A DNA stretch of 64,000 nt, from NCBI GenBank assembly GCA_964036195.1, contig OZ038452.1, positions 21,897,785-21,961,784 on the forward strand. The letters are read 5' to 3'. Origin of the DNA: Sphaerolaimus hirsutus. Its lineage: Eukaryota; Nematoda; Chromadorea; Monhysterida; Sphaerolaimidae. The position numbers were made by a program, and so were the translations under genes. This document shows positions 31,119-49,710 of the stretch, one piece after another. How positions within the stretch are numbered: position 1 is the stretch's first letter; every line of letters begins with the position of its first letter. The notes under the pieces are model-generated. The model was not told the origin of the DNA, searched no databases, and saw nothing but the letters and a program-made list of their open reading frames with translations.

Positions 31119-31524
31119 TTCACATAAATAAAAAAATCACACTGGATGTTGTTTTCATGTGTGATACTTTTAGTGGCCAATCTCCCATCTCTGCATGCTA
31201 CCATTTAAAATTAAGCGCTGATGTTTTGGTAAATGTTTTGGATGATAAACATGCAACGTAAATTGAAACGATTCCTCAGCGGCTGAGGTAAATATATTTA
31301 CCGTAAAAATTCAAATGCAAACGGCAGCTCATCATCAGCCACAAGCACCCGATAAATAATTATTAATTTGCAGTAAATGTCATCTTCAACTATCTGCACC
31401 TCGGTACAGGGGTCTCCGATGGGGGGGTTCAAATAGGCTTAGACACCGCTCATCTATCCCGATGCAAAAATTGGTATTCTATCCCCCGAAACCCCCCCCC
31501 CCCATTGTTCTGGTATCTTCCTAC
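31119..31524. other. Short spacer before the LTR element
   Basis: Unique DNA followed by a G-rich/C-rich repeat near 31415-31500 (GGGGGGGTTC and CCCCCGAAACCCCC) related to stretches near 19025-19210, 25180-25235 and 27280-27380. No gene is seen. Confidence 0.45.
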
Positions 31525-34164
31525 TGTCATGAATTTTCACCGGCTACTTTTTACTCAACCAAATTCCACTATGGCAAACTGCCAAGTTTTACCGATCTCA
31601 CACCTACTCGTTGGATGAGCGACAAAGTAAGGCAACGGAAAAGCGACTACCGATTGAATTCGCAACGCACAATGGTGAATTCACCGAAGTGAATATCACA
31701 GGTGTACGCTACGTCAATTAAGTTAGCTTTTTAGAGAATGGCGTTTTTATCAACGCACCAGCAATTAGTTGAATGTCTAATTTACACCAAGGGGTCCGAA
31801 GTTTTTAGAAGAGATTTTATTTTAGGCGATTTTTTAGACTCAGAATTCACACATTTAGATAGAACACAGGGAACACACTGAGAGCGAGTTTCTAACCAGC
31901 GGCACAAAACCTTCGAAAAAACTCCAAGAAAATGAAACCGAAGCAATTTCGACTGAATCGACCCCTACTCTAAATTACGGTACGCTTTTATACGCAACAA
32001 CATAAGCCAAGTCCAGACAACACTTCCACATACCACGAGAAGCATGCTTACAAACGACTTTACAGACACACGGAATTTTAAAACGGGCATACCTAAAATT
32101 ATTCACGGCGTCAGTTTACAGGATACGTCGATCAACTACACAAAAACACAAAGAATTCACGCGCCAAAAATCGGGTTGGGAACAAGAGCGAGGATAAAAA
32201 TAGAAAAATAAGAAAATGAACGAATGCGACAAGAATAAAAAGAACAGGAAAAACACACGAGATACTGTAAAAACTTGTTTTAGCGCGAAAAAAATGGCGG
32301 GCGATTCAAATTTTACTCAGCGAACTCTACCGAAATCCCAAAACCACCTCCACGAACGGGGAAACACACAGCAATTAGCGAAACAAATAAACACGCGAAC
32401 AGTAATCCCATCAGCAAAAAGAGCGTATAATAAACGAAAATGACGTTGATATCCAAAGCGTAAGAAGCACACGTATTATTAATGCACAACGAAAAAATGT
32501 CGTAAGTGGGATAATCCATGATAAGATTAGGATACCGGTAAGGCGAATGGAATTAATTTCCACACTGACTGTCAAGGAAAAAATGAATTACGGTACCGTT
32601 TTAAAGACTCTTAGCGGAAATTCTATCAGAGTGATTAAATAAATACGCACTCAAATCAGATCACCTTTACACTTATCAAAATATTCGGGGAAAAAACAGG
32701 AAAAACAAGCGGCTTATTATTTCATCTCTTTGTATAATAAAGATCAACCACGAAATTTGCATAAATTCCTAAATATCCAAATGTCAAGTTATCAGTTTTC
32801 TAGGGGAAAGGGAAATACAAAAAAAATCAATCTAGGATTAGGTAGATAAAAAAAATAGCGAAGTTGCAAACGTAAAATCAAATAAAAATTAACATACTCG
32901 AGTTTTACCTATTCCCTACCAAACCTAAAGTTAAAATGAATATGAAGTCGGTATAACGCTTAACAGAAATACGAACGCAAATGATTGGCAACTTGAAAGT
33001 TTATAAATTTCAATCTTTGTAGCTTAAATGCATGTTTAGATTGCATGACTTTTTTAAGTTTAAACTAAAAAAAAAAAAAAAACTCAAGTGAATCCACTGC
33101 CACATGCCGAAACGCAACAGCCATTAACTACCGAAGGCACTTATCACGAAAATGACCACTCTCGCTGCTACACCACTCATTCTGCTACCAGAATATTAAT
33201 TAGTCAGTCACGGCTTTTTGATCCCATACTCACTGTGCAAAAACCACACCCCGACAATACCGAACTGCTCAACTCACTCAAAAATAGGTACACTTGTCAC
33301 TGTATGGGTGCTTGTTTCGATGAGATCGGCGGACTGGGCTGTTCTCACAACAAGCCAAGGGAGTAGGCATTTAGACATGCGATCATGCCTGTCGAGTTAG
33401 ACTCGATTCTTTTAATTACCTCTCATTTTCAACACCAATCATCATCGCACCGCTATAATCAGTGTACCTTTGTAAAATCGCGTGTAAATTAACTTTTGTT
33501 TCCCAATCCGGAAATGCAGGAATGCACAGTACATACTAGATCAATAGCCGCGACCCTCATGTCAAAAAAATGCAACGAAAGTTAGTCAAAATTCAACCTA
33601 TGTGCCCTCAGTTATCACTGACCATTCACGCACTACGACACGTAACTGCAGCGTCACTCTTTTTACTTAGAGAAAATAACTGAAACTTTGTTATGCAATC
33701 CAAACCGCTAGTAAAAAATTACTTTTAAATTAAACTGTCACAATTAAAATTGTTGCCAATTCACTTGTCTCACTTTCTAAAAAAAAAACTACCTAATTAA
33801 AAAAATCTAAACAAATAAAAACAACTATTTACATCACAGCGTCAACTTTGTGTCAGATCCTCAATACCTCCAGTCCTTTCCTTGGCCAGAAAAAACACAC
33901 ATAACACAATGGGGCACCGGAAAAACGGAAATGCACGTTGCCACGTTGCCAACGTAGCGCAGCGACGTAGCCGAAAACGTCAACGCCACGTTCGCCCACC
34001 GAATCGCCCAAAACCATCGTCGAAGTAGAACTGAAATGTTTAAATTATTGTAAGCTCGGAAGTGTAAACAACCCTCTACATAAATTCATTAAGTGAACTA
34101 TATATACATTTACACTTAAAATTTTTGAAATTTTACAATTTTTGGACACCCACTTTTGCTCACA
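31525..34164 (-). repeat. 3-prime LTR
   Basis: This 2,640-base direct repeat is a near-identical copy of 46830-49469. On the plus strand it starts TGTCATGAATTTTC and ends TTTTGCTCACA. Short frames inside (for example 32216-32443 and 33088-33366) occur in both LTRs and have no recognisable domain. Confidence 0.95.
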
Positions 34165-34485
34165 AACTCCACCAGCCATACATTTTACCTCCCGGCTAAA
34201 ATCGAAGCACAGCAAAACTATTAAAGAAACGAATTGAACTAAATTCCCGTTTTTTGAGAACTATTTTAAACCAATTTTAAATTTGTTGACAACCATTACG
34301 CATTTTTCCACACTTTGTTGAGAACACACAAAAAAAACTTTTGAACCGGTAAAACTCAATGAAAATTCAATTTTCAATTCAACAAAAGCTCAATTCTACT
34401 GGTAAAACGTTCGCTCTAACAAAAACGACTAAATACAAAAACAACCAAAACAAAAAAAAAAAAATCCTGTACACCTAAATTACCA

Positions 34486-37400
34486 TTACTCCGCTTCCAT
34501 CTCCTCCTCTGGCTCCAAACCTGCCAAAGTTGGAGTCACTGGCGGGGGCGGACTCTGTTCCTCTTGCGGTGGCGGTGACGCGCCAACTACAACAACCTGA
34601 ACAGGTTGCTGCAGCTGCTGTGCGGCCACTTCCTCAGGCTGCTCCTGCTCCTGCTCATCTTCCTGCATGGGCTCAGCAGATTCATTGGCCTCCTCCTGGA
34701 TGGCGTCCATTTGTCTTAGCATCTGCCGGTCTGGGCTCATGGACTGTTGCTGTCGCTCAGCGTCCAACTCGGTGTTCAACTCGCCCGCCATTTGAATTAA
34801 CTCATCCAATTTTTCTCCAATAATTGCATTATTGGCCTCTTCAGTATCTGGCTCTGGTTCTTGCTCTTGCCGTTGACCTTCCATTGCCGGTTCCTGCTGT
34901 TGAGCACCTTGTTCACTTTGCTCCTGTTCCACCTCCATCACTTCCTCCTCCTGGTGCGTTTTCTGTTTGTGTGCCGGTACGGGCGGCGCGTGTTCAGACT
35001 CCGAGGCCGAATCGGTCTCACTCGATCCCGATTTTGACGAACCCGACGAAGAACTAGAGGAAGAGGAAGAACTCGACGAGGGAGAGCGACGACGACCGCG
35101 ATACCGACGCCAAGACCGAGAACAACTCGCTTTTTCATCCGCGCGCGGCTGAACTTTCTCTGACTCCTCCTCCTGCTCTTCGGGCGGCAACATTTGCACG
35201 TCTGGGGAATCGGGAGCGGGAACGACGTCGGCGTCTGGCTGAGGGGACGCTCGCTGTTCGCTCACATCCACCTCCTGAACTTCTTCCGGCGACGGCGGAA
35301 CCTCATTTTCTTCTTCTTCTTGCACGGGCGGAGCGGGTTCTTGCAGATCGACCGGCGCACTTCTCCAGTGGCCCAGAAACCTAGCCAACGGGTCACTCTC
35401 CCACAAATGTCGCTCGTGGTACGCAAAAACGCGTCCCTTTCCTAATTCCACCGCCACAAAACGCCAGAAAAATTCAGAATGCAGCACGGTAGCGGCGTTC
35501 ATGATCACGACTCTGGCCGTTTTGGCGCGAGACGTGGCCACGTTGCACCGCTCCGGCATCGCCAAAAAGCCAATTCTGTCCATCACATCGCGCTCGCGCT
35601 GCGACGGGTGTCCAGTAGCGTCCACGCGCGGCGCGCTACCCCTCACACATGACACAATCACCACGTGCGCTTCACGAGCTTGCGCTCGATCAGCAGTGAT
35701 GACTTTTTTCCGCCAAAACGCTGGGGTCGCTAAATAGCCAGGGAACCCCTCACCCCCTAACAACTGCGCCCAGCTCAATTGCACCAATTCGTCAATCACT
35801 CTTCTCTCCTGCGCTGAATAGAAACACACAATCAGCAGCGAATCGGCGCTTTCTAAATCACTCCACGGAACGACATTCTCGCCCTCGCTGTTCAGCGCCA
35901 AAATGACAAATTGCTGCACAACGCGCACCACAATGTCTACCTCCGTCAAATTTTTAACAGACACGCCCTCGCTCGTTTCAAAACCCATGTGCACGATCAC
36001 AGAAGACAAAGGCACCTGATCGGCACCGCAAGCCATAAGCGGCAAAATATCTCGCCACTGACTGTATTCGTGGAACGCGCGCAATTGGCCATCGTACGCA
36101 GCGACTGAATTCGCTTGAATCAGCGCGTCGTGGCCGCGGAAGACAGTCTCGAGCTTCAGAATTGGGCACAACACACCTTCCACCAACCTGTTGATCAGCG
36201 ATGGATCAGGTTTCAGGATCGGAGCGATCCATGAATGCGGCCTGACCATTCGGGTCAACTGCTTGCTATCCCCAAACAAAAGCACCAAGCCATTGTGGGG
36301 GAGTCGAGCGTTTGAAACAGCGCCAAAAATCGCAGTTTCATCCGCCAAAGACGCCTCGTCCACAAATACCGCGGCATATTTCAAAACTTGCAGTCGCTTA
36401 TCGCGCGATGAATCCAAGGTCACATGGACTTGGCCTGGCTGCAGCACATTCAACACCACCTTATGCAACCTAGTAGCCACCCTAACGAGGCGTCGCATTT
36501 CGCGCTTGTAAATTTTGCCCCACACCTGGTTGTCATCGACAAAGCCAGCCGCGGCCCCCCACGCCTGCACGCCCTCCTCTTGACCATCGTCCAGTGGCAC
36601 CAATTCATCCTCGTCGTCTTCGTCGATGGACAAACGAACCAAAGGCAACTGCGACCGAATGGCTTCGAAAATGTCGGCGGGGTGCTGATTGTTCGCGATG
36701 ATCTCGTTCAAAGTGTCACAAATATGGCGTTGAGCGGTAAAGCGTTCATAAGCAGTTAGCCAGTGGTCATTCAATCGGATCACATGCATGGGCATGTTTT
36801 GCGCGATCAAATTCAGCAGCGGCAATTGCTGGAGCGTCATATCGACGTAGCGATCGTCAACTTCCAACAATGGACTCAGCACGCGAATCGCGAAAGCGGC
36901 GCGCACCTGACAAAAACGCGCATAGCCAGGTGTTTGAAAATTTGGCTTATCATCCATCGCAGTCCACCTCTCCCTACTGCGCAGCAAAACTTCCACGACC
37001 GTTTCCAAATTAGGCAGACCAATGTTTGCCAAACTTTGCAACGATCGTCTGGCAGACTCATCAGCGGCCGAATTCACACTGCAAGTAATCATTGTGGAGT
37101 GGTAAAGCGCATTTTTGTTTGCATCAGAGGGCAATTCCCTCTTCAGCGGGTTCGGCGGGTCATTTTTCTCAGTAAATTTGAACGCAACCGCGTACGCACA
37201 CTGACTTTGCACAGTCGTTTTACCGGAACCGAACGGTGAATCACACATCAACAATAGCGGCGCAGTTTTTCGCACAGACTTGATAACTGACGCAATCACA
37301 CGCCCCTGCCCCTCCTGCGGCCGAAAATCACCCTGCTGCGCTTGCAATAAATCTTCGCATGTGCCTCTGCGCACCTCGGCATACAACCCGTCAGACTCAA

Positions 37401-39042
37401 TTTTTTCGAGCGTGCGCTGCCAATCAGTCTCAACTTGGTTCAACTGCTTGTGCAGCACTACCGCCATTTTGACCTGGTCTTCCACAGCGAGCATTCCGGT
37501 GTTGCTCTCGGTTGGCCGGTAACCACTAGGCCCCATTATGCACAACCGCTCCAAAATTTCCATGCGGCCATTGTAGCTAGGCGACAAAGCGGAACCGCGC
37601 ACCATGTAATCGCAATTAGGCAGCAAATGCGGCGACAGCGCCTGCGGCACCAACACATCCGGTTTGGCGACCAGCTGCACCGCCTCGGCAGTGATGTCGG
37701 CGCTGACCGTACGTAAATTTATTTGCGGGCGGCCAGTCAGAGCGCGCTCTTCCCCCCGGGGATCAGCTTCGACGATTTGTAGCGACGACATGGGCGAAGT
37801 AAAATTCAACATGTAGCCCTGCGCCTTATTCCTGTGCCACTCGGCCGTGTCGCGCATCGCAGCAGCTGGATTCAAATGCACGCGCTCCCACCTAATTATC
37901 GCAATTAATCCCCGCGGCCCATTTTGCCAAGTCACCTGCGCGCGCACCGCTTTCGCCCTAGTCGCTGTGTATCGCAAATGCGCTTCGTGACACACGTTAG
38001 CAGCGGCCAAAAAGATGGAACGAAGCTGCAGCTGAGAGGTGAGGTAATTTCTATTCATTTCGCCCTTCCACTCCATACCAGCCTCAATTTGCCGCGCCGA
38101 AAAAATACGCACGCCATACGCATGACCCCAATAAAAGTTGTTGACTTTGCCGGCGTCATCAAAAGCGTGATATTCTACATGCGCCACACCTAATTGTCCG
38201 GCGTGCGGGTGTATGTCACTTTCCATGACATTTTCGCTGTGCGCAAAAATTAACTTTTCAGGGCCCGGATCCCGCTCGTCGGCGCCTTTGAAGGGGGGTG
38301 CACTAATGTACCGCGAAGGGGTGAACGCTGCCCTCAAACGCAAGTATCTCCACTTGGCCGGATAAGGATGATATCCTTCGCGATTTTCCTGTCCTCTCTG
38401 TGAAATTTCCGATGCTGGCTCATCGACGGAGAGGTCAACCTGTCCTTGCGAAACAATAACAACAGGGCGGCCCAAAAACAATGGCATTTGAGCGTCATTT
38501 TTCATAATTGTGACGCCTCGCAATTCCCAATATTTCGGATTGGCGCTAACCCTACTGATACCAGTCGCGACAAAATGCATGCCGTGGCGGACAAGCGGCA
38601 AAAACATGTCGTAAGCTTCGTTAGCCTCGCGATATTCCCTCAAAATTTTCTGCACCGACCGCTCACGAGCGCGCTCCGCTTTGTTGACCGAATAGGTGAA
38701 AAAGGGATAAGCCGTTTCCGCTTCCGACCACTCCGGATAACTTTCCAAAAGCGCCTGCGCATCGCCGTCGAAACGAATGTGGCATTGATAACTGGTAGGA
38801 CGCTGCTCGTTACCGACGTGAACTCGATCCACTATTCCCGACAACTTCTGGTTGATGACAAATTCAGGACAAGTCGATCGGGCGTTTCGAGGAGGATTGT
38901 AGGGCAGCGGCGGAATAGTGTCACCGCCCTGTTTTCCATGAGAAGTCCACGACTTGAGCGGCGCTTTGGCTATGCGCCCGCCACGATACGAACTGGAACT
39001 CGCTCCATACCCACCCATGGGTACGCCACCCGAACTAGTCAT
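34486..39042 (-). CDS. Superfamily 1 (UPF1/DNA2-like) helicase of the retrotransposon
   Basis: One uninterrupted ATG frame of 1518 codons lies between integrase and the 3-prime LTR. Helicase motifs appear in order: Walker A PFGSGKTT (about 603-610), Walker B VFVDEAS (892-898), motif III FGDSKQL (923-929), a region with ETVFRG (965-970), motif V-like AQAREAHVVIVSCVRG (1120-1135) and motif VI NVATSRAK (1167-1174). This is the UPF1/DNA2 branch of SF1, ATP-driven enzymes that unwind or translocate on RNA or DNA. The first 580 residues have no domain I recognise. The last 300 are acidic and Gln/Glu/Pro-rich with an Arg/Ser stretch and a 13-residue serine run. It has its own ATG, 532 bases after the integrase stop, so it probably needs its own spliced or internal transcript. 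The role is unknown; no env-type features are seen. Confidence 0.9.
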   Translation of the reverse strand: MTSSGGVPMGGYGASSSSYRGGRIAKAPLKSWTSHGKQGGDTIPPLPYNPPRNARSTCPEFVINQKLSGIVDRVHVGNEQRPTSYQCHIRFDGDAQALLESYPEWSEAETAYPFFTYSVNKAERARERSVQKILREYREANEAYDMFLPLVRHGMHFVATGISRVSANPKYWELRGVTIMKNDAQMPLFLGRPVVIVSQGQVDLSVDEPASEISQRGQENREGYHPYPAKWRYLRLRAAFTPSRYISAPPFKGADERDPGPEKLIFAHSENVMESDIHPHAGQLGVAHVEYHAFDDAGKVNNFYWGHAYGVRIFSARQIEAGMEWKGEMNRNYLTSQLQLRSIFLAAANVCHEAHLRYTATRAKAVRAQVTWQNGPRGLIAIIRWERVHLNPAAAMRDTAEWHRNKAQGYMLNFTSPMSSLQIVEADPRGEERALTGRPQINLRTVSADITAEAVQLVAKPDVLVPQALSPHLLPNCDYMVRGSALSPSYNGRMEILERLCIMGPSGYRPTESNTGMLAVEDQVKMAVVLHKQLNQVETDWQRTLEKIESDGLYAEVRRGTCEDLLQAQQGDFRPQEGQGRVIASVIKSVRKTAPLLLMCDSPFGSGKTTVQSQCAYAVAFKFTEKNDPPNPLKRELPSDANKNALYHSTMITCSVNSAADESARRSLQSLANIGLPNLETVVEVLLRSRERWTAMDDKPNFQTPGYARFCQVRAAFAIRVLSPLLEVDDRYVDMTLQQLPLLNLIAQNMPMHVIRLNDHWLTAYERFTAQRHICDTLNEIIANNQHPADIFEAIRSQLPLVRLSIDEDDEDELVPLDDGQEEGVQAWGAAAGFVDDNQVWGKIYKREMRRLVRVATRLHKVVLNVLQPGQVHVTLDSSRDKRLQVLKYAAVFVDEASLADETAIFGAVSNARLPHNGLVLLFGDSKQLTRMVRPHSWIAPILKPDPSLINRLVEGVLCPILKLETVFRGHDALIQANSVAAYDGQLRAFHEYSQWRDILPLMACGADQVPLSSVIVHMGFETSEGVSVKNLTEVDIVVRVVQQFVILALNSEGENVVPWSDLESADSLLIVCFYSAQERRVIDELVQLSWAQLLGGEGFPGYLATPAFWRKKVITADRAQAREAHVVIVSCVRGSAPRVDATGHPSQRERDVMDRIGFLAMPERCNVATSRAKTARVVIMNAATVLHSEFFWRFVAVELGKGRVFAYHERHLWESDPLARFLGHWRSAPVDLQEPAPPVQEEEENEVPPSPEEVQEVDVSEQRASPQPDADVVPAPDSPDVQMLPPEEQEEESEKVQPRADEKASCSRSWRRYRGRRRSPSSSSSSSSSSSSGSSKSGSSETDSASESEHAPPVPAHKQKTHQEEEVMEVEQEQSEQGAQQQEPAMEGQRQEQEPEPDTEEANNAIIGEKLDELIQMAGELNTELDAERQQQSMSPDRQMLRQMDAIQEEANESAEPMQEDEQEQEQPEEVAAQQLQQPVQVVVVGASPPPQEEQSPPPPVTPTLAGLEPEEEMEAE

Positions 39043-39574
39043 ATTTCACACTTCAAAGTAGAGCACCGGAAAACACAACTTATTGCTACTTAAAATGCGC
39101 CACCCAGAATGTCGGCACCGAAATGCACGAAGGTCTGAGCGACACCCTAATCGAAAAGTTGCGAATTATTTTCAACGCACTACGTTGAACGTATTGCGCC
39201 AAAAATAATTTTTATTTTGTTGCGAAACGGGCGAAAATGAGAATGAAATTAAAGAACAAATTTAGAACGAAATAAATGCGATGGTATGAACAACTAACGA
39301 ATTAAACTTGCGGCGATAATTAGAAACGAACAATTAATAACACCGATAAAATTTTCGCGCTTTACCTTTTACATAAAGAATAACTTTTTACACTTTTTAC
39401 CTCAAAATTACCTTGCGCACAATCAAAAATACCAAATTTGCAACCCCGAACTCACCACGAATTGACGGTCAGAATTAAACGCGAATAATCCAAAAATAAA
39501 TTTTAATTGAATTTTCGAACGGAATAATTAACTTGAAGCACTTTAGGTTGAAGAGCGGAAAATCTCGGGGTTTT
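39043..39574 (-). other. Untranslated gap between integrase and helicase ORFs
   Basis: About 530 AT-rich bases with no open frame separate the two ORFs. It is the likely place for a splice acceptor or internal promoter for the helicase ORF; no single site stands out. Confidence 0.45.
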
Positions 39575-42283
39575 TTAACCGAAGATCTGCGAATAAGTGG
39601 GATTAACTGGCTCATTTGTCAATTTAACGCGATCAGCATGAACGGTATAAGTTTTCTTAGACAACCTATTAAACACGGTCACAATGGGATGCACATAATC
39701 TAAACATTCATACGGGCCAATATAATGATGCGTGAATTTCTTAACGCGACCTAACTTTCGAAGAATTCGGGGCGAATAAACACGAACTGATTGACCGGGC
39801 TTCAAATTCAAGCGGCGCGCACTGCGATTTGCATAAAAACACTCTTTTTCTTGCGCGCGCTGTAAAGCCGAATGTGCGGCCGTGCGGACGTCCGAAAGTC
39901 GCGCGTCTAAATTTGACACAAAAGGACTGTACGCCTTCGGCTTATCGGTCTTATCGGTGCCATTTCCCGTCGGCTCGATCATACGCTCCCAAAGTGACGG
40001 AGAATTTGATCCAAATAGCAACGCATATGGTGTCACTTTCATAGAGGGGTGCATAGACGTATTATACGCATAGACAGCGGCGCCTAAGTGTTTGTCCCAA
40101 TCCGAATGCGAGCCATTCACATAATGTGAAATTATTTCCATTAAGACTCCATTCCTACGCTCAACCAAACCATTCCCCTTTGGCGTATAATTGAAACACT
40201 TATGCTGCACTGTATTTAGATAACGTAGCAATTCCGCAAAAATGCCGCCAATGAAGCTTGGTGCATTGTCGGATAAGATTACAGCGGGCACACCAAAAAT
40301 CGGTAACACATGTTGCAAAAACACAATAGCCACAGTATCTTGCTTCAAATTAGGAACAGGCACTGCTAAACCAAAACGCGTACATTGATCCACAAATACC
40401 AATACATGCACATTCCTTTTTTCGGTAATTGGCAATGGCCCTACGGCATCAATCGCAATAAAATCACCAGGAAACTTAGCGATTTTCCGGCTCTGAATTT
40501 GAGTTTTCATTGAGCGGCGCAATCCTTTCTTCGCGTTGCACGAAGGGCAAGTAGAAACCCATCTAGCGCATTCTGGACGCATATTTGTAAACCAAGCAAA
40601 TTCGCGCAATCTTTCAAACGTTTTCATCACACCTAAATGTCCAGCAGTGGGATGATTATGAGCCAATTCTAACACAGTGACAACTAGTGACTGGGGAATG
40701 CACGCAGGGTCGTATTTCCTTTCACCCACTAATATTGACGGGTCTGCATCACGCCTGACAACATCAAATTGATCAATGAAAAACGGTGGGGCCCTACGCA
40801 AAGTAGATTCCTCGCACATACGACGAATTGTAATTATATACGGTTCTTCTTTTTGCAAACGCGACAACTCTTCAATTGGAGTAATGGGAGGAGGTAAAGC
40901 ATCGAGTTTTTCCGGTTTCTTAATTAATTGAACAGAACGGCGGCCACCAGCCATTAATTTAGGCGCATCGTCACTTTTGGGCGGCGATTTCAAAGCATTT
41001 TCAGAATTGGACTCCACCTTCTTTTTACTTCGCACACGCATTGTCATTGGATGCGGCGCCCGCACAGTAGCAACGCTTGCCACTGGCAGTTCAGTAGCTA
41101 CCGTAACTAACGGTTCCAAAGACTTCATTTTCGCATGTTTCAGCCAATTTTGAGCAGCAGCCAATCGTGCCATGGCCTTAGCTACCGCTTGACAAGCCAA
41201 ATGTTCCTCAGATGTTAACAACGCCATTTCCTCAGTCAAAATTCTCGCCAATTCATCAACAGGTATATCAAATGCATATTCCTCAAACGCTTCGTCCAAA
41301 TTAACACGCTCATCAAATTCAACGGGTGCATCACGCCGGCGCGACAAAGCATCAGCCAATTCGTTACTTTTCCCACGCAAATGCTTAAAAGTAACTTGAT
41401 ATGATTGAATAGCAAGCGCAAATCGGTGCAAACCCGTATGGGGATGGGTTTCCAAATTTGGATTTTTCACCCATGAAATACTTTTCGCATCAGTCCAAAC
41501 TTCAAACGGCCGGCCCGCTAAATAACAATGCCAATTGCGTATGCTCTCAAAAATAGCACATGCTTCTTGCGTAATTGCAGGCCATCGGGATTGCGCTTCA
41601 GAAAGTTTTCGACTATAAAATGAACACGCATGCAAAGCGGCGGCAGGTTCAGCGCGTTGTACTAAAATGCCAGCTAATGCAACTTTAGAAGCATCGGTAA
41701 TAATTATGAACGGTTTACTGGGATCAGGATACTGTATACAGGGACTTTCAGCCACCATCACTTTCAACTTATTAAAAGCTTCCAAAGCGGCGGGGTTCGC
41801 ATTTAAATCTACGGGAGTACTTCCGCTATACTTTTCAGTTCCTAATTCAGTTTTTGTTCGAGTTAAATTAGACAAAGGAGCGGCATATTCAGCACATTTA
41901 TGAATTAATCTCCGGAAAAACCCAACGGCACCCAAAAACGCTTTAACTTCACGCACACACACAGGTAGCGGCCAGTCACTCAAATACTTTCGCTTATCAT
42001 CCGGTATACAAATCCCTTCACGCCCTACCATATAACCCAGGAATTTAACAGCAGTTGTGCGCGCGAAAAAACACTTTTTTGGGTGTATTTTAAAACTGCT
42101 ACTTATCAAACGCGACAAAACCTGACTTATATCACTCAAATGATCTTCCCATGACCTACTGTAAATGAGCAAATCATCTATATATACCAACACATTTCGA
42201 TGCAATAATCCAGCCATTGTAACTTCAAAACAGCGCTGCGCTAAAGCCGGGGAACACTTTAATCCCATCGGCAAGCGTTTCAT
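39575..42283 (-). CDS. pol: Pol, downstream part: RT, RNase H, integrase
   Basis: The 902-codon frame starts within reverse transcriptase. The RT active site YIDD is at about residues 34-37 (in VLVYIDDLLIYS), preceded by LPMGLKCSPA. An RNase H domain follows (FIIITDASK, EVWTDAKS). The integrase has an HHCC zinc site (HNHPTAGHLG...CPSC) and a DDE core with Asp in AIDAVGPLP, Asp in ILSDNAPSF and Glu in LVERRNG. This order is characteristic of Ty3/gypsy. The frame is shifted by one base from the upstream gag-pol frame, within a run of five T residues near 42385 on the coding strand, in the middle of RT. I interpret that as a disabling mutation or an assembly error. Confidence 0.93.
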   Translation of the reverse strand: MKRLPMGLKCSPALAQRCFEVTMAGLLHRNVLVYIDDLLIYSRSWEDHLSDISQVLSRLISSSFKIHPKKCFFARTTAVKFLGYMVGREGICIPDDKRKYLSDWPLPVCVREVKAFLGAVGFFRRLIHKCAEYAAPLSNLTRTKTELGTEKYSGSTPVDLNANPAALEAFNKLKVMVAESPCIQYPDPSKPFIIITDASKVALAGILVQRAEPAAALHACSFYSRKLSEAQSRWPAITQEACAIFESIRNWHCYLAGRPFEVWTDAKSISWVKNPNLETHPHTGLHRFALAIQSYQVTFKHLRGKSNELADALSRRRDAPVEFDERVNLDEAFEEYAFDIPVDELARILTEEMALLTSEEHLACQAVAKAMARLAAAQNWLKHAKMKSLEPLVTVATELPVASVATVRAPHPMTMRVRSKKKVESNSENALKSPPKSDDAPKLMAGGRRSVQLIKKPEKLDALPPPITPIEELSRLQKEEPYIITIRRMCEESTLRRAPPFFIDQFDVVRRDADPSILVGERKYDPACIPQSLVVTVLELAHNHPTAGHLGVMKTFERLREFAWFTNMRPECARWVSTCPSCNAKKGLRRSMKTQIQSRKIAKFPGDFIAIDAVGPLPITEKRNVHVLVFVDQCTRFGLAVPVPNLKQDTVAIVFLQHVLPIFGVPAVILSDNAPSFIGGIFAELLRYLNTVQHKCFNYTPKGNGLVERRNGVLMEIISHYVNGSHSDWDKHLGAAVYAYNTSMHPSMKVTPYALLFGSNSPSLWERMIEPTGNGTDKTDKPKAYSPFVSNLDARLSDVRTAAHSALQRAQEKECFYANRSARRLNLKPGQSVRVYSPRILRKLGRVKKFTHHYIGPYECLDYVHPIVTVFNRLSKKTYTVHADRVKLTNEPVNPTYSQIFG

Positions 42284-42377
42284 CTGAAATTGACCAAAAC
42301 AATTACGAAACGACGTAATATGTCTATCATCCGGATGCAGCGCAATGTTGTAAAACGCTTGATTGATATCGACACTG

Positions 42378-45300
42378 CTAAAAATATTTGCAACTGTGCA
42401 ATGACTCTATTGTATCGTCTAATCTGGGCAGCGGAAATTGGGGAGCGTGAACTACTGCATTTAATCGTCGATAATCTATCACCATGCGCTTGGCACCATC
42501 CGGCTTAGTAACAACTAATGTCGGCGCGCAGTACGGACTCGTACTGTGTTCAATGACGTCATGCTCAAGCAGGCAACTTAAATGCTTTTCTAAGTACTGC
42601 TGGTCATCCAAACTCAACCTATACATTCGACACGCGACCGGAATTTTACTAGTCAACTGAAGTCGATAATCAACCAATTCACTGTATCCCAAATCATACT
42701 TATCCCTGGCGAAAGCATCCTGATGAGTCAAAATTAACTCTTTTAATTGCTGGCGCTTAATTTCGTCCAATTCAACCGGTACTTCAAAATCCATTTCCCT
42801 CCCATCGGCACAAACCACTTTCCTAGTCGTATTCGCCGCTTTTGAAGGTACAGTGCCCTTCGTTGGTACTTTTTCCTCACTAGCTTCAAGTATAGTATCG
42901 GTAAAACTCATATCACGCTCGCGGCACTCTCGCACCCACTCAGCAGGCGGATCACCTCGACGCACTTGTAAAACACACTCCACTGGCTCTACGATGGCAA
43001 TTTTCTGGCCCACCTGCAACTTTACTGGCACCTCAGTCACATTAACACACCTCACCGGAAATAATTCACTCGCGCTTTCATAAACAGCATTAGCTGCAAA
43101 CACACCCGTTTTCACATGAAATTCGTTCAAAGGCTCAATCGCAAACGTCAATTCATCAATTGGTTCAGATAATTTCGCACTAATTATCGTTTCATGCCGC
43201 GGCTTAATTTCAGTCGGTTCAGTCACAACTGCATAAATATGCCGTTCTTGCACTACAGGCGACGGGTTGTCAAAAGGCACAGTCAACTTTTCACGCGCAT
43301 CGCCACTCTCAATTCGCAACTCACGCGCAGGCATATCAATAACCATATGCCTCAATACATCAGCGCCTAATAAAATGTCGTCCGACAAACCGCTAATCAC
43401 CTGAAATACAATAGAAAACGCTTTCCCGGTAATCATCACTTGAAGTTCCAGCTGACCCTCAATTTGCAATTTGCATTGAGACGCGCTTTGCAATCCCCCC
43501 ACAGGCGTGACCTCATCAAACGCTATGCAATTATTTCGATGCCTAGCCAACACCAGCGGGCTGCACAATGACCTCATCGCACCTGTGTCCAACAGACACC
43601 TTTTGTATTCATTCCCCTCAATTTCTACCGTAATCGACGGACTATAGTAAATTGGCACGAGTTCTTTACGCTTAGCCGTAATACTTTTGATGTTCGCAAT
43701 TTCTTCACTGGTCAGCGTGACTACATTCACCTTTTCCATGACGGCAGAACCTTTAGGAACGCGCAGCGGCGGCAAACGCTTAAATCTACTCACTGGCGTT
43801 TCTTCAATATCGGCGCCATACCCTGAACTGTCAGCGCTAACTGGATTTAACTTTTGCGGCGGTGTCACGGGGGTCGCACCCCTTGCAGGATTGCGCCTAT
43901 TTTCTATCGCTAACATGCGATTTAATTGAACCCGCAACACTCTCATTTTTATCCAATCACACACTGTGAACACTAAATACAACACCAGTTCACACAAAGC
44001 GGGCAGAATATATCTCAAAAACACGGAAGTGCACATTCCAGCGATAAATCCCTCAAGAAAATTTCGCACGGTCAAAATCCACTCATCTGACTCTCCTTTT
44101 TTCTTAACAACGCCACCACTTGGAACACCCAGGGCGTCAACACTTGCAAAAAACGTAAATAGACAGCACAGGAAAAACACACGGTTCAACACACTGGGCA
44201 ACATACTCGGTTCCGACCACGTTCGGTACAAAGTTGGCACGCTCGCTTCACAATAATCGGACAACACATACAATTCAGAGTCAGATGACGTTCGCGACAA
44301 ACTAATGTCCGGCGGTTCACACATAAATGTATGCATGGTCAATTCTAGCAGCGCTTCTAACTTAACGTACGTCAACGTGTCCTCAGGGTCATCATGCGGA
44401 TGCTCATCAGCATGCTCACAAAACCCGCTTATATTCAATCCCTGCAAACCCATGTGTTGCAATTGAGCCCACCACTTTGTTCGAAAAATCATGCTATCTA
44501 ACGAACGCGCATAAACCCAAGGCATAATCCAAGCCTCTCTTTCGAGCATGAATTGATGTTCTTGCGGCGTTATTTCAGGCGGATTGCATGGATCCTCTGC
44601 TTCCTCATCTGAACTTTCAAGACCCGGTACAACCCTAATCATGCGCACATATTCCTTACTTTCTTGCACGCTGCGTGCATGATTCACTGAGTTCGCAGAC
44701 ACGCGCGTCGGATTTAACGCAGTCAATTCAGTTGACGGAGGGGCCGCAATGGCCATTTGCGATGATTGAACTTGTTGCACTGGAGACCAACTAGTAGTTG
44801 ACACTTGCGCGGGAGGGGGATAATACAGGTAAGGCGGCGCTTGCATGGAATATACAGGTTGCTGTGCAGAGCGCATCATATTCGCTGGACCTCTGAAGCT
44901 ATTCATCGGTCGCTGCGGCGGCCCGCGCCGAAAATTTCTAAAGCGCGCTCTTTCCTCTTCTGTCAATTTAGGACAATCAGAGCGAAAGTGATCATCTGCC
45001 CCACATTCATAACAGCCCTCATCAAATTTACGCGGCCTAAATTTGGAAACTGGTTTCGCAGCATTGTTACCTATCAATTGCTTTTCCAAGTCAACTAAAC
45101 GCTTATCCTTATCCTCTAACTGCCTAGAAAGTTCTTCCAATTTCACTCGCTGTTCCTCAAACTTTGGATTTTCCGCCGCCACCGGAACGGGCGGGGAATT
45201 TCCGAAAGCTCCCGCACCCCCTAAAGCAAAAATTCGCTCGATTACCGAATTGGTGGCTTCTGAAACTAATTCAGCGTTGGATTTTGACTTTTTCTTACCA

Positions 45301-46769
45301 CCCACTTTGTCCTTATCAATTTCCAGAAAACTTTCTTGCGTGCGCGCATTATTGACTACGTCTTGAAACTTAGCCCCAGCAGTAATAGATACATTCCTAC
45401 GGATGTCAGGATACAATCCACTGACAAATTTCGCCACTGCCATCTTTTCGCGTTCAATTTTTGAAAGTTTCGGAAAAGCGCGTTTTATAATCTTCTCCAG
45501 CCGCACTGACCAATTTAACACATCTTCATCTTCGCCCTGCTCACTACTAATCACTTCCCTTTGCGCATGATGCTCCGAAATGGGGTTAGTATAATAACGT
45601 TCCAAAGCGTCCATAAACTCCTCATAATCCAAATTAATCAATTCACTCTTATGCGACATGTAAATCGAACGCGCGCTGTCACGCAAATAAACCGGAAGCA
45701 GCGATTTTCGCTCATCCGTCGGAATTTGCAACGCCTCACAAACTGCGTCCCAATTTTTACGCCAATCAGCAAATTTATCATCAGCGCGCCCCTTAAAAGG
45801 TATCACCTGTCCAGTAAGCGCGGTCATGGCAGCAGCATAACCCTCCCTACTAGTAGCAATCATACTCACAGCAGGTATAGGTGGTGTGGTAGCGGTAGAG
45901 CACCCTCCCGAATTAGAAACAGCGCTAATTATAGAATTAATCGCTTGCATGTCAGGCTTTTCTAAATGAATATACTCAGCAAATGCATTAATCGCGTCCG
46001 CAATTTGACTCACATCATTTCGCAAATTATAGCAGTCAACACCTAACTTTACTAATGACACTAATTTTTCGTCATTATCACTCATGTTCCCATTTTCCAA
46101 AGAACTCATGGGTCGCTGATTATACAAATAAGCGGCAATACTCACCGTTTGAGTCACAACCTGACTAAGGTTCCATTCTGACCCCTGAACCGAATTCCCC
46201 ACTATCGACGAATTAATTTGATTCAAAGTCAAATTTTTCGCTTGAATCAACAATTGCACCACATCGGGACCCGTGTTCACACCACTACCGCTCGCATGCG
46301 CCATACTCAAGGTAGAATACCGGAAAAACACACACTCACTCGACGACTGGGTACTCGCGCTTCGGTACCCGGCACTCGCGCTTCGGTGCCCTAACTTACT
46401 TTGCCCTACGGTCGGGAATGGCACCTCCGCACCCGCACTTGGCTTGCCTTGCTCACAGGTCGGGAATGACTCCTCCGCACCTCTTTCAGGGACCGGTCCT
46501 TCCGCGTCCACCCAGCAGTTGACGTCAAAGTCGTTAGGTTCGTCACTCAACTCAGCGGTTCCCGGTTCAGAACAGTGCGCGTCCGTACTGAACTGAACCG
46601 ATTTCGATTTTTTCTTACTTTTCCGCTTTTCCCTTTTTTGCCCACTAATAATTTCGTCAGTTTCGCGTCCCAAAACAAAAATATCCGTGCTTATCGGTTG
46701 CGTCGATCGGGTAGCCTTCCGTTCCTCCAGCCGGGCGGTGGTTCGTTTGTTCTCACCAGCGATTGTCAA
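42378..46769 (-). CDS. gag-pol: Gag-protease-RT polyprotein, upstream part
   Basis: The open frame spans 1463 codons. The first in-frame ATG of note is at 46304, beginning MAHASGSGVNTG; codons before it may be leader. A capsid-like region runs to about residue 490 (FADWRKNWDAVCEAL, FVSGLYPDIRR). A coiled-coil-like stretch (540-566) precedes a zinc knuckle CYECGADDHFRSDC (586-599, CX2CX4HX4C). Unusually, residues about 858-881 look like a signal peptide (RVFFLCCLFTFFASVDALG) and 905-940 like a membrane segment. The aspartic protease follows with LLDTGA (1059-1064) and ILLGAD (1132-1137). RT begins near 1380 and stops at 42378 after KYF because of the one-base shift described for the downstream frame. 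Gag packages the genome and the protease matures the polyprotein. Confidence 0.92.
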   Translation of the reverse strand: MTIAGENKRTTARLEERKATRSTQPISTDIFVLGRETDEIISGQKREKRKSKKKSKSVQFSTDAHCSEPGTAELSDEPNDFDVNCWVDAEGPVPERGAEESFPTCEQGKPSAGAEVPFPTVGQSKLGHRSASAGYRSASTQSSSECVFFRYSTLSMAHASGSGVNTGPDVVQLLIQAKNLTLNQINSSIVGNSVQGSEWNLSQVVTQTVSIAAYLYNQRPMSSLENGNMSDNDEKLVSLVKLGVDCYNLRNDVSQIADAINAFAEYIHLEKPDMQAINSIISAVSNSGGCSTATTPPIPAVSMIATSREGYAAAMTALTGQVIPFKGRADDKFADWRKNWDAVCEALQIPTDERKSLLPVYLRDSARSIYMSHKSELINLDYEEFMDALERYYTNPISEHHAQREVISSEQGEDEDVLNWSVRLEKIIKRAFPKLSKIEREKMAVAKFVSGLYPDIRRNVSITAGAKFQDVVNNARTQESFLEIDKDKVGGKKKSKSNAELVSEATNSVIERIFALGGAGAFGNSPPVPVAAENPKFEEQRVKLEELSRQLEDKDKRLVDLEKQLIGNNAAKPVSKFRPRKFDEGCYECGADDHFRSDCPKLTEEERARFRNFRRGPPQRPMNSFRGPANMMRSAQQPVYSMQAPPYLYYPPPAQVSTTSWSPVQQVQSSQMAIAAPPSTELTALNPTRVSANSVNHARSVQESKEYVRMIRVVPGLESSDEEAEDPCNPPEITPQEHQFMLEREAWIMPWVYARSLDSMIFRTKWWAQLQHMGLQGLNISGFCEHADEHPHDDPEDTLTYVKLEALLELTMHTFMCEPPDISLSRTSSDSELYVLSDYCEASVPTLYRTWSEPSMLPSVLNRVFFLCCLFTFFASVDALGVPSGGVVKKKGESDEWILTVRNFLEGFIAGMCTSVFLRYILPALCELVLYLVFTVCDWIKMRVLRVQLNRMLAIENRRNPARGATPVTPPQKLNPVSADSSGYGADIEETPVSRFKRLPPLRVPKGSAVMEKVNVVTLTSEEIANIKSITAKRKELVPIYYSPSITVEIEGNEYKRCLLDTGAMRSLCSPLVLARHRNNCIAFDEVTPVGGLQSASQCKLQIEGQLELQVMITGKAFSIVFQVISGLSDDILLGADVLRHMVIDMPARELRIESGDAREKLTVPFDNPSPVVQERHIYAVVTEPTEIKPRHETIISAKLSEPIDELTFAIEPLNEFHVKTGVFAANAVYESASELFPVRCVNVTEVPVKLQVGQKIAIVEPVECVLQVRRGDPPAEWVRECRERDMSFTDTILEASEEKVPTKGTVPSKAANTTRKVVCADGREMDFEVPVELDEIKRQQLKELILTHQDAFARDKYDLGYSELVDYRLQLTSKIPVACRMYRLSLDDQQYLEKHLSCLLEHDVIEHSTSPYCAPTLVVTKPDGAKRMVIDYRRLNAVVHAPQFPLPRLDDTIESLHSCKYF

Positions 46770-46811
46770 ACGGTGATCAGTCGCCTGAACTCACTGGGAA
46801 TATTAAACAAA

Positions 46812-46829
46812 CCACTCGCTGCTACCAGT
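46812..46829 (-). other. Primer-binding site
   Basis: Immediately inside the 5-prime LTR the coding strand reads AC then TGGTAGCAGCGAGTGG. It starts with TGG, the complement of a tRNA CCA end, at the position expected for minus-strand priming. I could not assign the tRNA. Confidence 0.6.
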
Positions 46830-49469
46830 TGTCATGAATTTTCACCGGCTACTTTTTACTCAACCAAATTCCACTATGGCAAACTGCCAAGTTTTACCGA
46901 TCTCACACCTACTAGTTGGATGAGCGACAAAGTAAGGCAACGGAAAAGCGACTACCGATTGAATTCGCAACGCACAATGGTGAATTCACCGAAGTGAATA
47001 TCACAGGTGTACGCTACGTCAATTAAGTTAGCTTTTTAGAGAATGGCGTTTTTATCAACGCACCAGCAATTAGTTGAATGTCTAATTTACACCAAGGGGT
47101 CCGAAGTTTTTAGAAGAGATTTTATTTTAGGCGATTTTTTAGACTCAGAATTCACACATTTAGATAGAACACAGGGAACACACTGAGAGCGAGTTTCTAA
47201 CCAGCGGCACAAAACCTTCGAAAAAACTCCAAGAAAATGAAACCGAAGCAATTTCGACTGAATCGACCCCTACTCTAAATTACGGTACGCTTTTATACGC
47301 AACAACATAAGCCAAGTCCAGACAACACTTCCACATACCACGAGAAGCATGCTTACAAACGACTTTACAGACACACGGAATTTTAAAACGGGCATACCTA
47401 AAATTATTCACGGCGTCAGTTTACAGGATACGTCGATCAACTACACAAAAACACAAAGAATTCACGCGCCAAAAATCGGGTTGGGAACAAGAGCGAGGAT
47501 AAAAATAGAAAAATAAGAAAATGAACGAATGCGACAAGAATAAAAAGAACAGGAAAAACACACGAGATACTGTAAAAACTTGTTTTAGCGCGAAAAAAAT
47601 GGCGGGCGATTCAAATTTTACTCAGCGAACTCTACCGAAATCCCAAAACCACCTCCACGAACGGGGAAACACACAGCAATTAGCGAAACAAATAAACACG
47701 CGAACAGTAATCCCATCAGCAAAAAGAGCGTATAATAAACGAAAATGACGTTGATATCCAAAGCGTAAGAAGCACACGTATTATTAATGCACAACGAAAA
47801 AATGTCGTAAGTGGGATAATCCATGATAAGATTAGGATACCGGTAAGGCGAATGGAATTAATTTCCACACTGACTGTCAAGGAAAAAATGAATTACGGTA
47901 CCGTTTTAAAGACTCTTAGCGGAAATTCTATCAGAGTGATTAAATAAATACGCACTCAAATCAGATCACCTTTACACTTATCAAAATATTCGGGGAAAAA
48001 ACAGGAAAAACAAGCGGCTTATTATTTCATCTCTTTGTATAATAAAGATCAACCACGAAATTTGCATAAATTCCTAAATATCCAAATGTCAAGTTATCAG
48101 TTTTCTAGGGGAAAGGGAAATACAAAAAAAATCAATCTAGGATTAGGTAGATAAAAAAAATAGCGAAGTTGCAAACGTAAAATCAAATAAAAATTAACAT
48201 ACTCGAGTTTTACCTATTCCCTACCAAACCTAAAGTTAAAATGAATATGAAGTCGGTATAACGCTTAACAGAAATACGAACGCAAATGATTGGCAACTTG
48301 AAAGTTTATAAATTTCAATCTTTGTAGCTTAAATGCATGTTTAGATTGCATGACTTTTTTAAGTTTAAACTAAAAAAAAAAAAAAAACTCAAGTGAATCC
48401 ACTGCCACATGCCGAAACGCAACAGCCATTAACTACCGAAGGCACTTATCACGAAAATGACCACTCTCGCTGCTACACCACTCATTCTGCTACCAGAATA
48501 TTAATTAGTCAGTCACGGCTTTTTGATCCCATACTCACTGTGCAAAAACCACACCCCGACAATACCGAACTGCTCAACTCACTCAAAAATAGGTACACTT
48601 GTCACTGTATGGGTGCTTGTTTCGATGAGATCGGCGGACTGGGCTGTTCTCACAACAAGCCAAGGGAGTAGGCATTTAGACATGCGATCATGCCTGTCGA
48701 GTTAGACTCGATTCTTTTAATTACCTCTCATTTTCAACACCAATCATCATCGCACCTCTATAATCAGTGTACCTTTGTAAAATCGCGTGTAAATTAACTT
48801 TTGTTTCCCAATCCGGAAATGCAGGAATGCACAGTACATACTAGATCAATAGCCGCGACCCTCATGTCAAAAAAATGCAACGAAAGTTAGTCAAAATTCA
48901 ACCTATGTGCCCTCAGTTATCACTGACCATTCACGCACTACGACACGTAACTGCAGCGTCACTCTTTTTACTTAGAGAAAATAACTGAAACTTTGTTATG
49001 CAATCCAAACCGCTAGTAAAAAATTACTTTTAAATTAAACTGTCACAATTAAAATTGTTGCCAATTCACTTGTCTCACTTTCTAAAAAAAAAACTACCTA
49101 ATTAAAAAAATCTAAACAAATAAAAACAACTATTTACATCACAGCGTCAACTTTGTGTCAGATCCTCAATACCTCCAGTCCTTTCCTTGGCCAGAAAAAA
49201 CACACATAACACAATGGGGCACCGGAAAAACGGAAATGCACGTTGCCACGTTGCCAACGTAGCGCAGCGACGTAGCCGAAAACGTCAACGCCACGTTCGC
49301 CCACCGAATCGCCCAAAACCATCGTCGAAGTAGAACTGAAATGTTTAAATTATTGTAAGCTCGGAAGTGTAAACAACCCTCTACATAAATTCATTAAGTG
49401 AACTATATATACATTTACACTTAAAATTTTTGAAATTTTACAATTTTTGGACACCCACTTTTGCTCACA
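46830..49469 (-). repeat. 5-prime LTR
   Basis: This is the partner of 31525-34164, with the same termini and a constant offset of 15,305 bases. It should contain the promoter and poly(A) signal; these were not located with confidence. Confidence 0.95.
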
Positions 49470-49710
49470 CTACCTTGAGTGAATTTTGACCTATTTTGCA
49501 ATTTTGCACTAATTTTTGCACCTTGTGGCTCATTTTCACTTCAAAATCGCTTTTAAGCTATTTGTGTAGTGATACACCTATTTTAGTTATGTTAACATAT
49601 TTTTGGTAAATTTTTTACCTTTCTGCTTGTCCACCTCGAAAACGCCCGTGTATCGAACACCCGCGAGCCCACCCCCCCCCCCCCCCACAAAAATGCCCCC
49701 CCCAGAGCAG

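What the first reader, a model, noticed from the sequence alone, without database searches (positions are those of the whole stretch)
34486..39042. An LTR retrotransposon that carries an intact superfamily 1 helicase
Seen: a 1518-codon ORF with Walker A GSGKTT, Walker B VDEAS, GDSKQL and NVATSRAK lies between integrase and 3-prime LTR, same strand, inside one LTR pair with a 4-base duplication. Known: Ty3/gypsy elements normally encode gag-pol and sometimes env; helicases belong to Helitrons and RNA viruses. Inference: the element captured or evolved a UPF1/DNA2-like helicase, perhaps to protect its RNA from decay or to aid reverse transcription. Intactness in a young copy suggests it is maintained.
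Basis: partly seen in the sequence, partly recalled or inferred. Interest (0 to 1): 0.93.

Follow-up and report, generated by a model that had tools for sequence, protein, structure and literature searches.

The report
Jumping element carrying a helicase-like gene
A young retrovirus-like jumping element in a eukaryote's genome carries, after its usual genes, one large unbroken gene for what looks like a UPF1-type helicase (an enzyme that unwinds nucleic acids), an unusual passenger or tool that might help the element cope with the host's RNA surveillance.

Summary
On the minus strand, 31525-49469 is one Ty3/gypsy-type LTR element of 17,945 bp, with two 2,640-bp LTRs (2 differences), TG...CA ends and a CTAC target duplication. 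Between integrase and the 3' LTR lies a sense 1,518-codon ORF, 34486-39042. Its core matches AAA_12 (9e-20) and, just under cut-off, AAA_11 (1.8e-5); the nearest solved structures are NAM7/UPF1 and SMUBP-2. The P-loop is read by eye only. No nested-element borders were found. The N-terminal region matches no Pfam family, and no viral helicase model appeared. No relative was found in two protein searches, IMG/VR or GTDB. Codon usage differs from gag-pol, which hints at capture. Pol changes frame inside RT, so this copy is young but not fully intact. Whether a family of elements carries the helicase is untested: the host-genome search was unanswered in 19 of 19 tries. Best reading: an accessory third gene acting on the element's own RNA against surveillance or restriction (function inferred). 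New variant of a known kind (LTR elements with captured third ORFs).

The parts
46830..49469 (-). 5' LTR, 2640 bp
   Evidence: 99.92% identical to 31525-34164; TG...CA ends
31525..34164 (-). 3' LTR, 2640 bp
49470..49473 (.). target-site duplication CTAC, 5' side of the element
31521..31524 (.). target-site duplication CTAC, 3' side of the element
46810..46827 (-). putative primer-binding site, begins TGG two bases inside the 5' LTR; tRNA not identified
   Evidence: read by eye
42378..46790 (-). gag - PR - start of RT, one open frame (first in-frame ATG at 46304; PNMA-like capsid, CCHC knuckle, hydrophobic segments, weak protease match)
39575..42406 (-). rest of RT - RNase H - H2C2 - integrase, in another frame
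39043..39574 (-). 532-bp spacer between pol stop and helicase ATG, with donor- and acceptor-like sites of unknown use
34486..39042 (-). ORF3: UPF1-like SF1 helicase, 1518 aa
37213..37239 (-). motif I (Walker A), SPFGSGKTT
   Evidence: by eye; not covered by the AAA_11 match, and a 649-aa piece that contains it gave 0 Pfam families
36253..36429 (-). AAA_11 match holding motifs II and III
   Evidence: E 1.8e-5, 25.1 bits against a cut-off of 27
35497..36201 (-). AAA_12 domain holding motifs IV-VI
   Evidence: E 2.2e-19, 70.2 bits against a cut-off of 27, whole ORF
34489..35382 (-). 298-aa Glu/Gln/Ser/Pro-rich acidic tail with a short RS-like stretch (35068-35109)
   Evidence: net charge -50; SR-25 match under its cut-off, 20.9 against 40 bits
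37606..39042 (-). 479-aa N-terminal region with no recognised domain
   Evidence: 0 Pfam families

Best explanation
A Ty3/gypsy-type LTR retrotransposon acquired a UPF1/DNA2-like SF1 helicase gene and carries it as a third ORF in the place where related elements have env. Shown: one insertion unit with LTRs and TSD; the ORF in sense and unbroken; a helicase core with readable motifs; no nested-element borders. Inferred: the protein is made from a spliced (subgenomic) or separately started RNA; it binds the element's long RNA (internal region 12,665 bp, with 5,410 bp between the pol stop and the 3' LTR, which would look like a very long 3' UTR on gag-pol RNA); and it protects or remodels that RNA against host surveillance (NMD) or helicase-based restriction, as an element-owned UPF1/MOV10-like factor.
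For: LTR pair and TSD. Sense ORF, 1518 codons, far over chance. AAA_12/AAA_11 matches. Of 12 PDB sequences matched by the core up to E 10, 10 are NAM7, UPF1 or SMUBP-2. No TIR+TSD pair better than shuffles (32 of 40 shuffles equal or exceed it). Codon usage of the helicase departs from gag-pol (GC3 0.586 against 0.453 and 0.381; correlation 0.77 and 0.66, against 0.92 between gag-PR and RT-IN), as expected for a gene of other origin. Retroviral full-length RNA is described as having traits that NMD targets, a long 3' UTR among them (PMC2925335), and HIV-1 recruits host UPF1 for genomic RNA export (PMC4693258): both seen as search listing with the start of the abstract.
Against: One copy only; no second copy, transcript or dN/dS. 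Pol is frame-interrupted, so this copy may never have moved as it stands. Motif I rests on reading by eye: the only tool support is a weak P-loop match (nSTAND_NTPase5, E 0.096), the 649-aa piece that contains it matched no Pfam family, and it has Ser where the usual signature (recalled) has Gly/Ala. No UPF1-type N-terminal domain was recognised. The codon-usage contrast is not clean: pieces of the helicase itself correlate as low as 0.64 (tail against core). The function step has no direct evidence.
Confidence: 0.45

Rival explanations
1. The helicase is an element gene that helps replication directly: it travels in the particle and unwinds the RNA/DNA template during reverse transcription of an unusually long genome.
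For: Internal region 12,665 bp plus 2.6-kb LTRs; a helicase could ease processivity; the motif set is readable.
Against: Giant LTR elements such as Burro and Ogre are larger (passages of PMC6431247); the three uses of 'helicase' counted in that paper fall in its Helitron, Polinton and Teratorn sections. The ORF is not fused to Gag or Pol, so packaging is unexplained.
Confidence: 0.23
2. Passenger: a host helicase mRNA was trapped between the LTRs of this one copy (transduction) and has no role for the element.
For: Intronless ORF with codon usage unlike gag-pol. Two host exons have GC3 19 of 38 and 48 of 63, nearer the helicase; but they were picked, whose score was trained on the element's own ORFs, so this is biased. 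Only one copy is known; pol is frame-interrupted.
Against: The ORF sits between pol and the 3' LTR in sense, with spacers on both sides. No host-type relative was found in two protein searches that scored 7985 and 7992 candidates, so a capture would be old, or from a fast-evolving gene or an unsampled host.
Confidence: 0.2
3. A separate mobile element or gene inserted into an already integrated LTR element.
For: Distinct base composition (GC 54% against 45% in gag-pol) and codon usage. One AT-rich 12-base inverted match between the two spacers was reached by 1% of 300 mononucleotide shuffles.
Against: Best TIR(12)+TSD score 13, reached or exceeded in 32 of 40 shuffles. The 12-base match did not come out as the best TIR+TSD pair. 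Longest direct match between the spacers is 9 bases, reached in 81% of 300 shuffles. No sense A-run of 8 or more in 34001-39700; the two runs found are T-runs in sense.
Confidence: 0.07
4. The helicase is virus-derived, as in insect TRAS/Jockey LINEs.
For: Such captures are described (PMC5563155, passages; PMC6338049, passages).
Against: Those are virga-like SF1 helicases; this one matches AAA_11/AAA_12 and UPF1/NAM7/SMUBP-2, and no viral helicase appears in Pfam or PDB with limits of E 10 or in PHROGs up to E 1 (viruses of prokaryotes only).
Confidence: 0.05

Closest known systems
Insect LINE elements (TRAS, Jockey) and Ty1/copia fusions with virus-derived SF1 helicase (PMC5563155, passages)
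   Same: A retrotransposon-encoded SF1 helicase; roles in RNA quality control or silencing suppression are proposed there
   Different: Those are LINEs, or SF1H fused to a copia RNase H or integrase, with a virga-like helicase; here a Ty3/gypsy-type element with a free-standing UPF1-like ORF of 1518 aa
Bdelloid rotifer LTR retrotransposons with enzymatic ORF3 (GDSL esterase, DEDDy exonuclease; PMC5408684, abstract and passages)
   Same: An enzyme gene in the env position, downstream of pol
   Different: Other enzymes; 'helicase' occurs once in the held text, in a reference title
Orchid Ty3/Gypsy elements with an m6A RNA demethylase domain (PMC9289625, search listing)
   Same: A Ty3/gypsy element with an acquired RNA-acting enzyme domain
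   Different: Demethylase, plant
UPF1 / NAM7 / IGHMBP2 (SMUBP-2) helicases
   Same: Helicase core, AAA_11/AAA_12 architecture
   Different: Weak similarity only (best PDB E 8.7e-4); no UPF1 N-terminal domain recognised; 229 residues between motifs Ia and II, more than I recall for UPF1; acidic tail with an RS stretch

Membership tests
Ty3/gypsy (Metaviridae) LTR retrotransposon | Two LTRs with TG...CA ends and a 4-6 bp TSD | tested here: met
Ty3/gypsy (Metaviridae) LTR retrotransposon | Domain order Gag-PR-RT-RNase H-IN | tested here: met
   the protease match is weak and under its cut-off (E 0.046, 0.022)
Ty3/gypsy (Metaviridae) LTR retrotransposon | Pol groups within a Ty3/gypsy clade | tested here: inconclusive
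   397 hits with E <= 0.001; the 120 listed were put in a tree with P0002, which is a long branch with weak support for its neighbours (0.64)
Ty3/gypsy (Metaviridae) LTR retrotransposon | tRNA primer-binding site and polypurine tract | tested here: inconclusive
   TGG two bases after the 5' LTR, tRNA not identified; no textbook PPT seen (by eye)
UPF1-like (SF1B, DNA2/NAM7) helicase | AAA_12 domain | tested here: met
   71.5 bits over a cut-off of 27
UPF1-like (SF1B, DNA2/NAM7) helicase | AAA_11 domain | tested here: inconclusive
   25.1 bits, under the cut-off of 27, and only the last quarter of the profile (196-251 of 257)
UPF1-like (SF1B, DNA2/NAM7) helicase | Motifs I, Ia, II-VI in order | tested here: inconclusive
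   II, III, V and VI align to NAM7/UPF1; I, Ia and IV only by eye
UPF1 orthologue | N-terminal Cys-His (UPF2-interacting) domain (recalled as defining) | tested here: not met
   0 Pfam families in the N-terminal 479 or 649 residues with a limit of E 10
Virus-derived SF1 helicase of insect retrotransposons | Match to alphavirus-type viral helicase | tested here: not met
   no such family
Nested transposon carrying the helicase | Own terminal repeats and TSD around 34.3-39.2 kb | tested here: not met
Family of helicase-bearing LTR elements | Further copies with both LTRs and the ORF | not testable with these tools
   The genome search unanswered in 19 of 19 tries

The most novel reading that the evidence does not exclude
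A lineage of Ty3/gypsy-type retroelements has made a UPF1-type helicase its own third gene, in place of env, and uses it to steer host RNA surveillance or small-RNA silencing of its own long RNA: an element-encoded counterpart of a host restriction and decay factor.
Probability: 0.35. Interest if true: 0.88.

Novelty: new variant of a known kind. Interest (0 to 1): 0.7.

Why it matters
UPF1-like helicases help decide the fate of RNAs with long 3' ends, and retroviruses recruit or block the host's copy. An LTR element that brings its own would be a natural test of whether RNA surveillance limits retrotransposons, and would add an RNA-remodelling enzyme to the list of captured third ORFs.

Tried and rejected
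Single-sequence AlphaFold2 of the helicase core gave mean pLDDT 33.4 and was not used for any fold comparison. Protein searches for helicase relatives: none at E <= 0.001 or E <= 10 (piece). IMG/VR scans with the helicase and with pol, and a GTDB scan with the helicase core, found none; each scan rests on six short peptide patterns, so distant relatives would be missed. A plasmid tblastn gave 81 of 72,556 records at E <= 1; 8 were listed, best E 0.01, 6 of the 8 annotated as AAA domain-containing protein. No Rfam family at gathering scores in the window, no tRNA by ARAGORN.

Pfam on 20 flank ORFs or segments gave 4 weak matches, none at its cut-off. Two of the 32 segments printed were picked by eye for PDB searches: one TBC1D15-like, one Ariadne-type RBR-like. 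They point to a eukaryote, nothing narrower; nematode was my early guess and has no support. The pol tree did not settle a lineage. A tree with SETX, DNA2, ZNFX1 and MOV10 was not built, because no such sequences were in hand. Troyka was considered and dropped: it has CG...CG ends and 3-bp TSDs (PMC12440569, abstract and passages).

Full report
Observation. On the minus strand the window holds one LTR element from 49469 down to 31525 (17,945 bp). The LTRs are 46830-49469 and 31525-34164, 2640 bp each, with 2 differences; ends are TG...CA and the flanks repeat CTAC. Upstream lie a gag-PR-RT frame (42378-46790) and an RT-RH-IN frame (39575-42406), with PNMA-like capsid, CCHC, RT, RNase H, H2C2 and integrase matches; the CCHC and protease matches are under their cut-offs. 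The finding's ORF, 34486-39042, is in sense, 1518 aa, after a 532-bp spacer. The longest open frame in 200 mononucleotide shuffles was 221 codons against 1519 stop-to-stop.

What the ORF is. In the full ORF AAA_12 is the only Pfam family over its cut-off (E 2.2e-19). The core piece, residues 480-1220, gives AAA_12 9e-20 and AAA_11 1.8e-5, the latter just under cut-off and covering only the end of the profile. NCBIfam gives the IGHMBP2-family model at 1.4e-9, far below its cut-off (37 against 348.9 bits). Of 12 PDB sequences matched up to E 10 by the core, 10 are NAM7, UPF1 or SMUBP-2 (E 8.7e-4 to 0.014) and 2 are Pizza6 proteins at E 0.57 and 1.5. Motifs II, III, V and VI align to NAM7 and UPF1; I, Ia and IV I read by eye. 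Motif I, SPFGSGKTT, has Ser where the usual signature (recalled) has Gly or Ala; a 649-aa piece containing it gave 0 Pfam families, and the core piece gave only nSTAND_NTPase5 at E 0.096 there. So the ATP-binding half is the weak point of the assignment. The N-terminal 479 residues match no Pfam family. The last 298 residues are acidic (net -50) and Glu/Gln/Ser/Pro-rich, with a short RS stretch.

Is it part of the element? A scan for terminal inverted repeats plus target duplication across the two spacers gave a best score of 13; 32 of 40 shuffles reached it. Direct matches between the spacers are at chance (9 bases; 81% of 300 shuffles). One 12-base AT-rich inverted match was reached in 1% of 300 mononucleotide shuffles; it did not come out as the best terminal pair with a duplication. 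There is no sense A-run of 8 or more. So nothing speaks clearly for a nested insertion, though an old one with lost borders is not excluded.

Origin. GC is 54% in the ORF and 45% over 39575-46790. GC3 is 0.586 in the helicase, 0.453 in gag-PR and 0.381 in RT-IN; relative codon usage correlates 0.92 between gag-PR and RT-IN but 0.77 and 0.66 with the helicase. Against over-reading this: pieces of the helicase correlate with each other at 0.84 (N-terminal part with core), 0.71 (tail with N-terminal part) and only 0.64 (tail with core), so length and composition matter. Two host exons have GC3 19 of 38 and 48 of 63, but they came from a score trained on the element's ORFs, a bias. Two protein searches found no relative (7985 candidates scored, none at E <= 0.001; 7992 scored, none at E <= 10). 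That database does hold named animal proteins, since the pol search returned some. The helicase is therefore fast-evolving, long diverged, or from a poorly sampled host.

Against the intact-element reading. Pol changes frame inside RT. It may be a recent mutation or an assembly error; either way this copy cannot be called fully intact. With 2 LTR differences the copy is young, so an open helicase frame shows that the parent was open, not that selection holds it in this copy.

Mechanism. Committed reading: an accessory third gene acting on the element's own RNA, shielding it from decay or helicase-based restriction (0.45 for the whole statement, function part inferred). Copy number, dN/dS and transcripts would separate them; none could be had, since genome search was unanswered in 19 of 19 tries.

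Known context. PMC5563155 (passages) reports virus-derived SF1 helicases in insect LINEs and fused to Ty1/copia proteins in Aedes aegypti and Leptopilina boulardi, and proposes Upf1-like quality control and silencing suppression; my functional reading is thus an extension of an existing idea. PMC6338049 (passages) says such helicases suppress silencing weakly in a plant system. PMC5408684 (abstract and passages) reports enzyme ORF3s in rotifer LTR elements. PMC6431247 (passages) reviews ORF capture downstream of pol. Nine literature searches were answered; they matched 2,414 papers, overlaps included, and listed 86 rows. Among those rows no title or abstract start describes a UPF1-like helicase ORF in a Ty3/gypsy element. 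The library lacks most subscription papers, and no repeat database was searched.

Verdict. Clean anatomy; a UPF1-like helicase core as third ORF of an LTR element; one copy; function inferred.

Noticed in passing
window 43950-44204 (minus strand): Two hydrophobic stretches (residues about 856-884 and 908-940 of P0003) lie between the Gag zinc knuckle and the protease match in the same frame, an unusual place for membrane-type segments.
   Followed up: partly
window 42378-42406 (minus strand): Pol changes reading frame inside the RT domain; mutation and assembly error cannot be told apart.
   Followed up: partly
window 46304-46790 (minus strand): About 160 open codons precede the first in-frame ATG of gag, with a donor-like site near the start (by eye); a non-ATG or spliced start is possible.
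   Followed up: no
window 50980-52118: Large palindrome: arms of 478 bp, 98% complementary, 183 bp apart.
   Followed up: no
window 20042-20155 (+): TBC1D15-like host exon, PDB E 2.6e-4.
   Followed up: partly
window 28381-28569 (+): Ariadne-type RBR ubiquitin-ligase-like host exon, PDB E 0.0015.
   Followed up: partly
window 39164-39210: Imperfect 47-base hairpin in the pol-helicase spacer, 81% identical to its own reverse complement.
   Followed up: no
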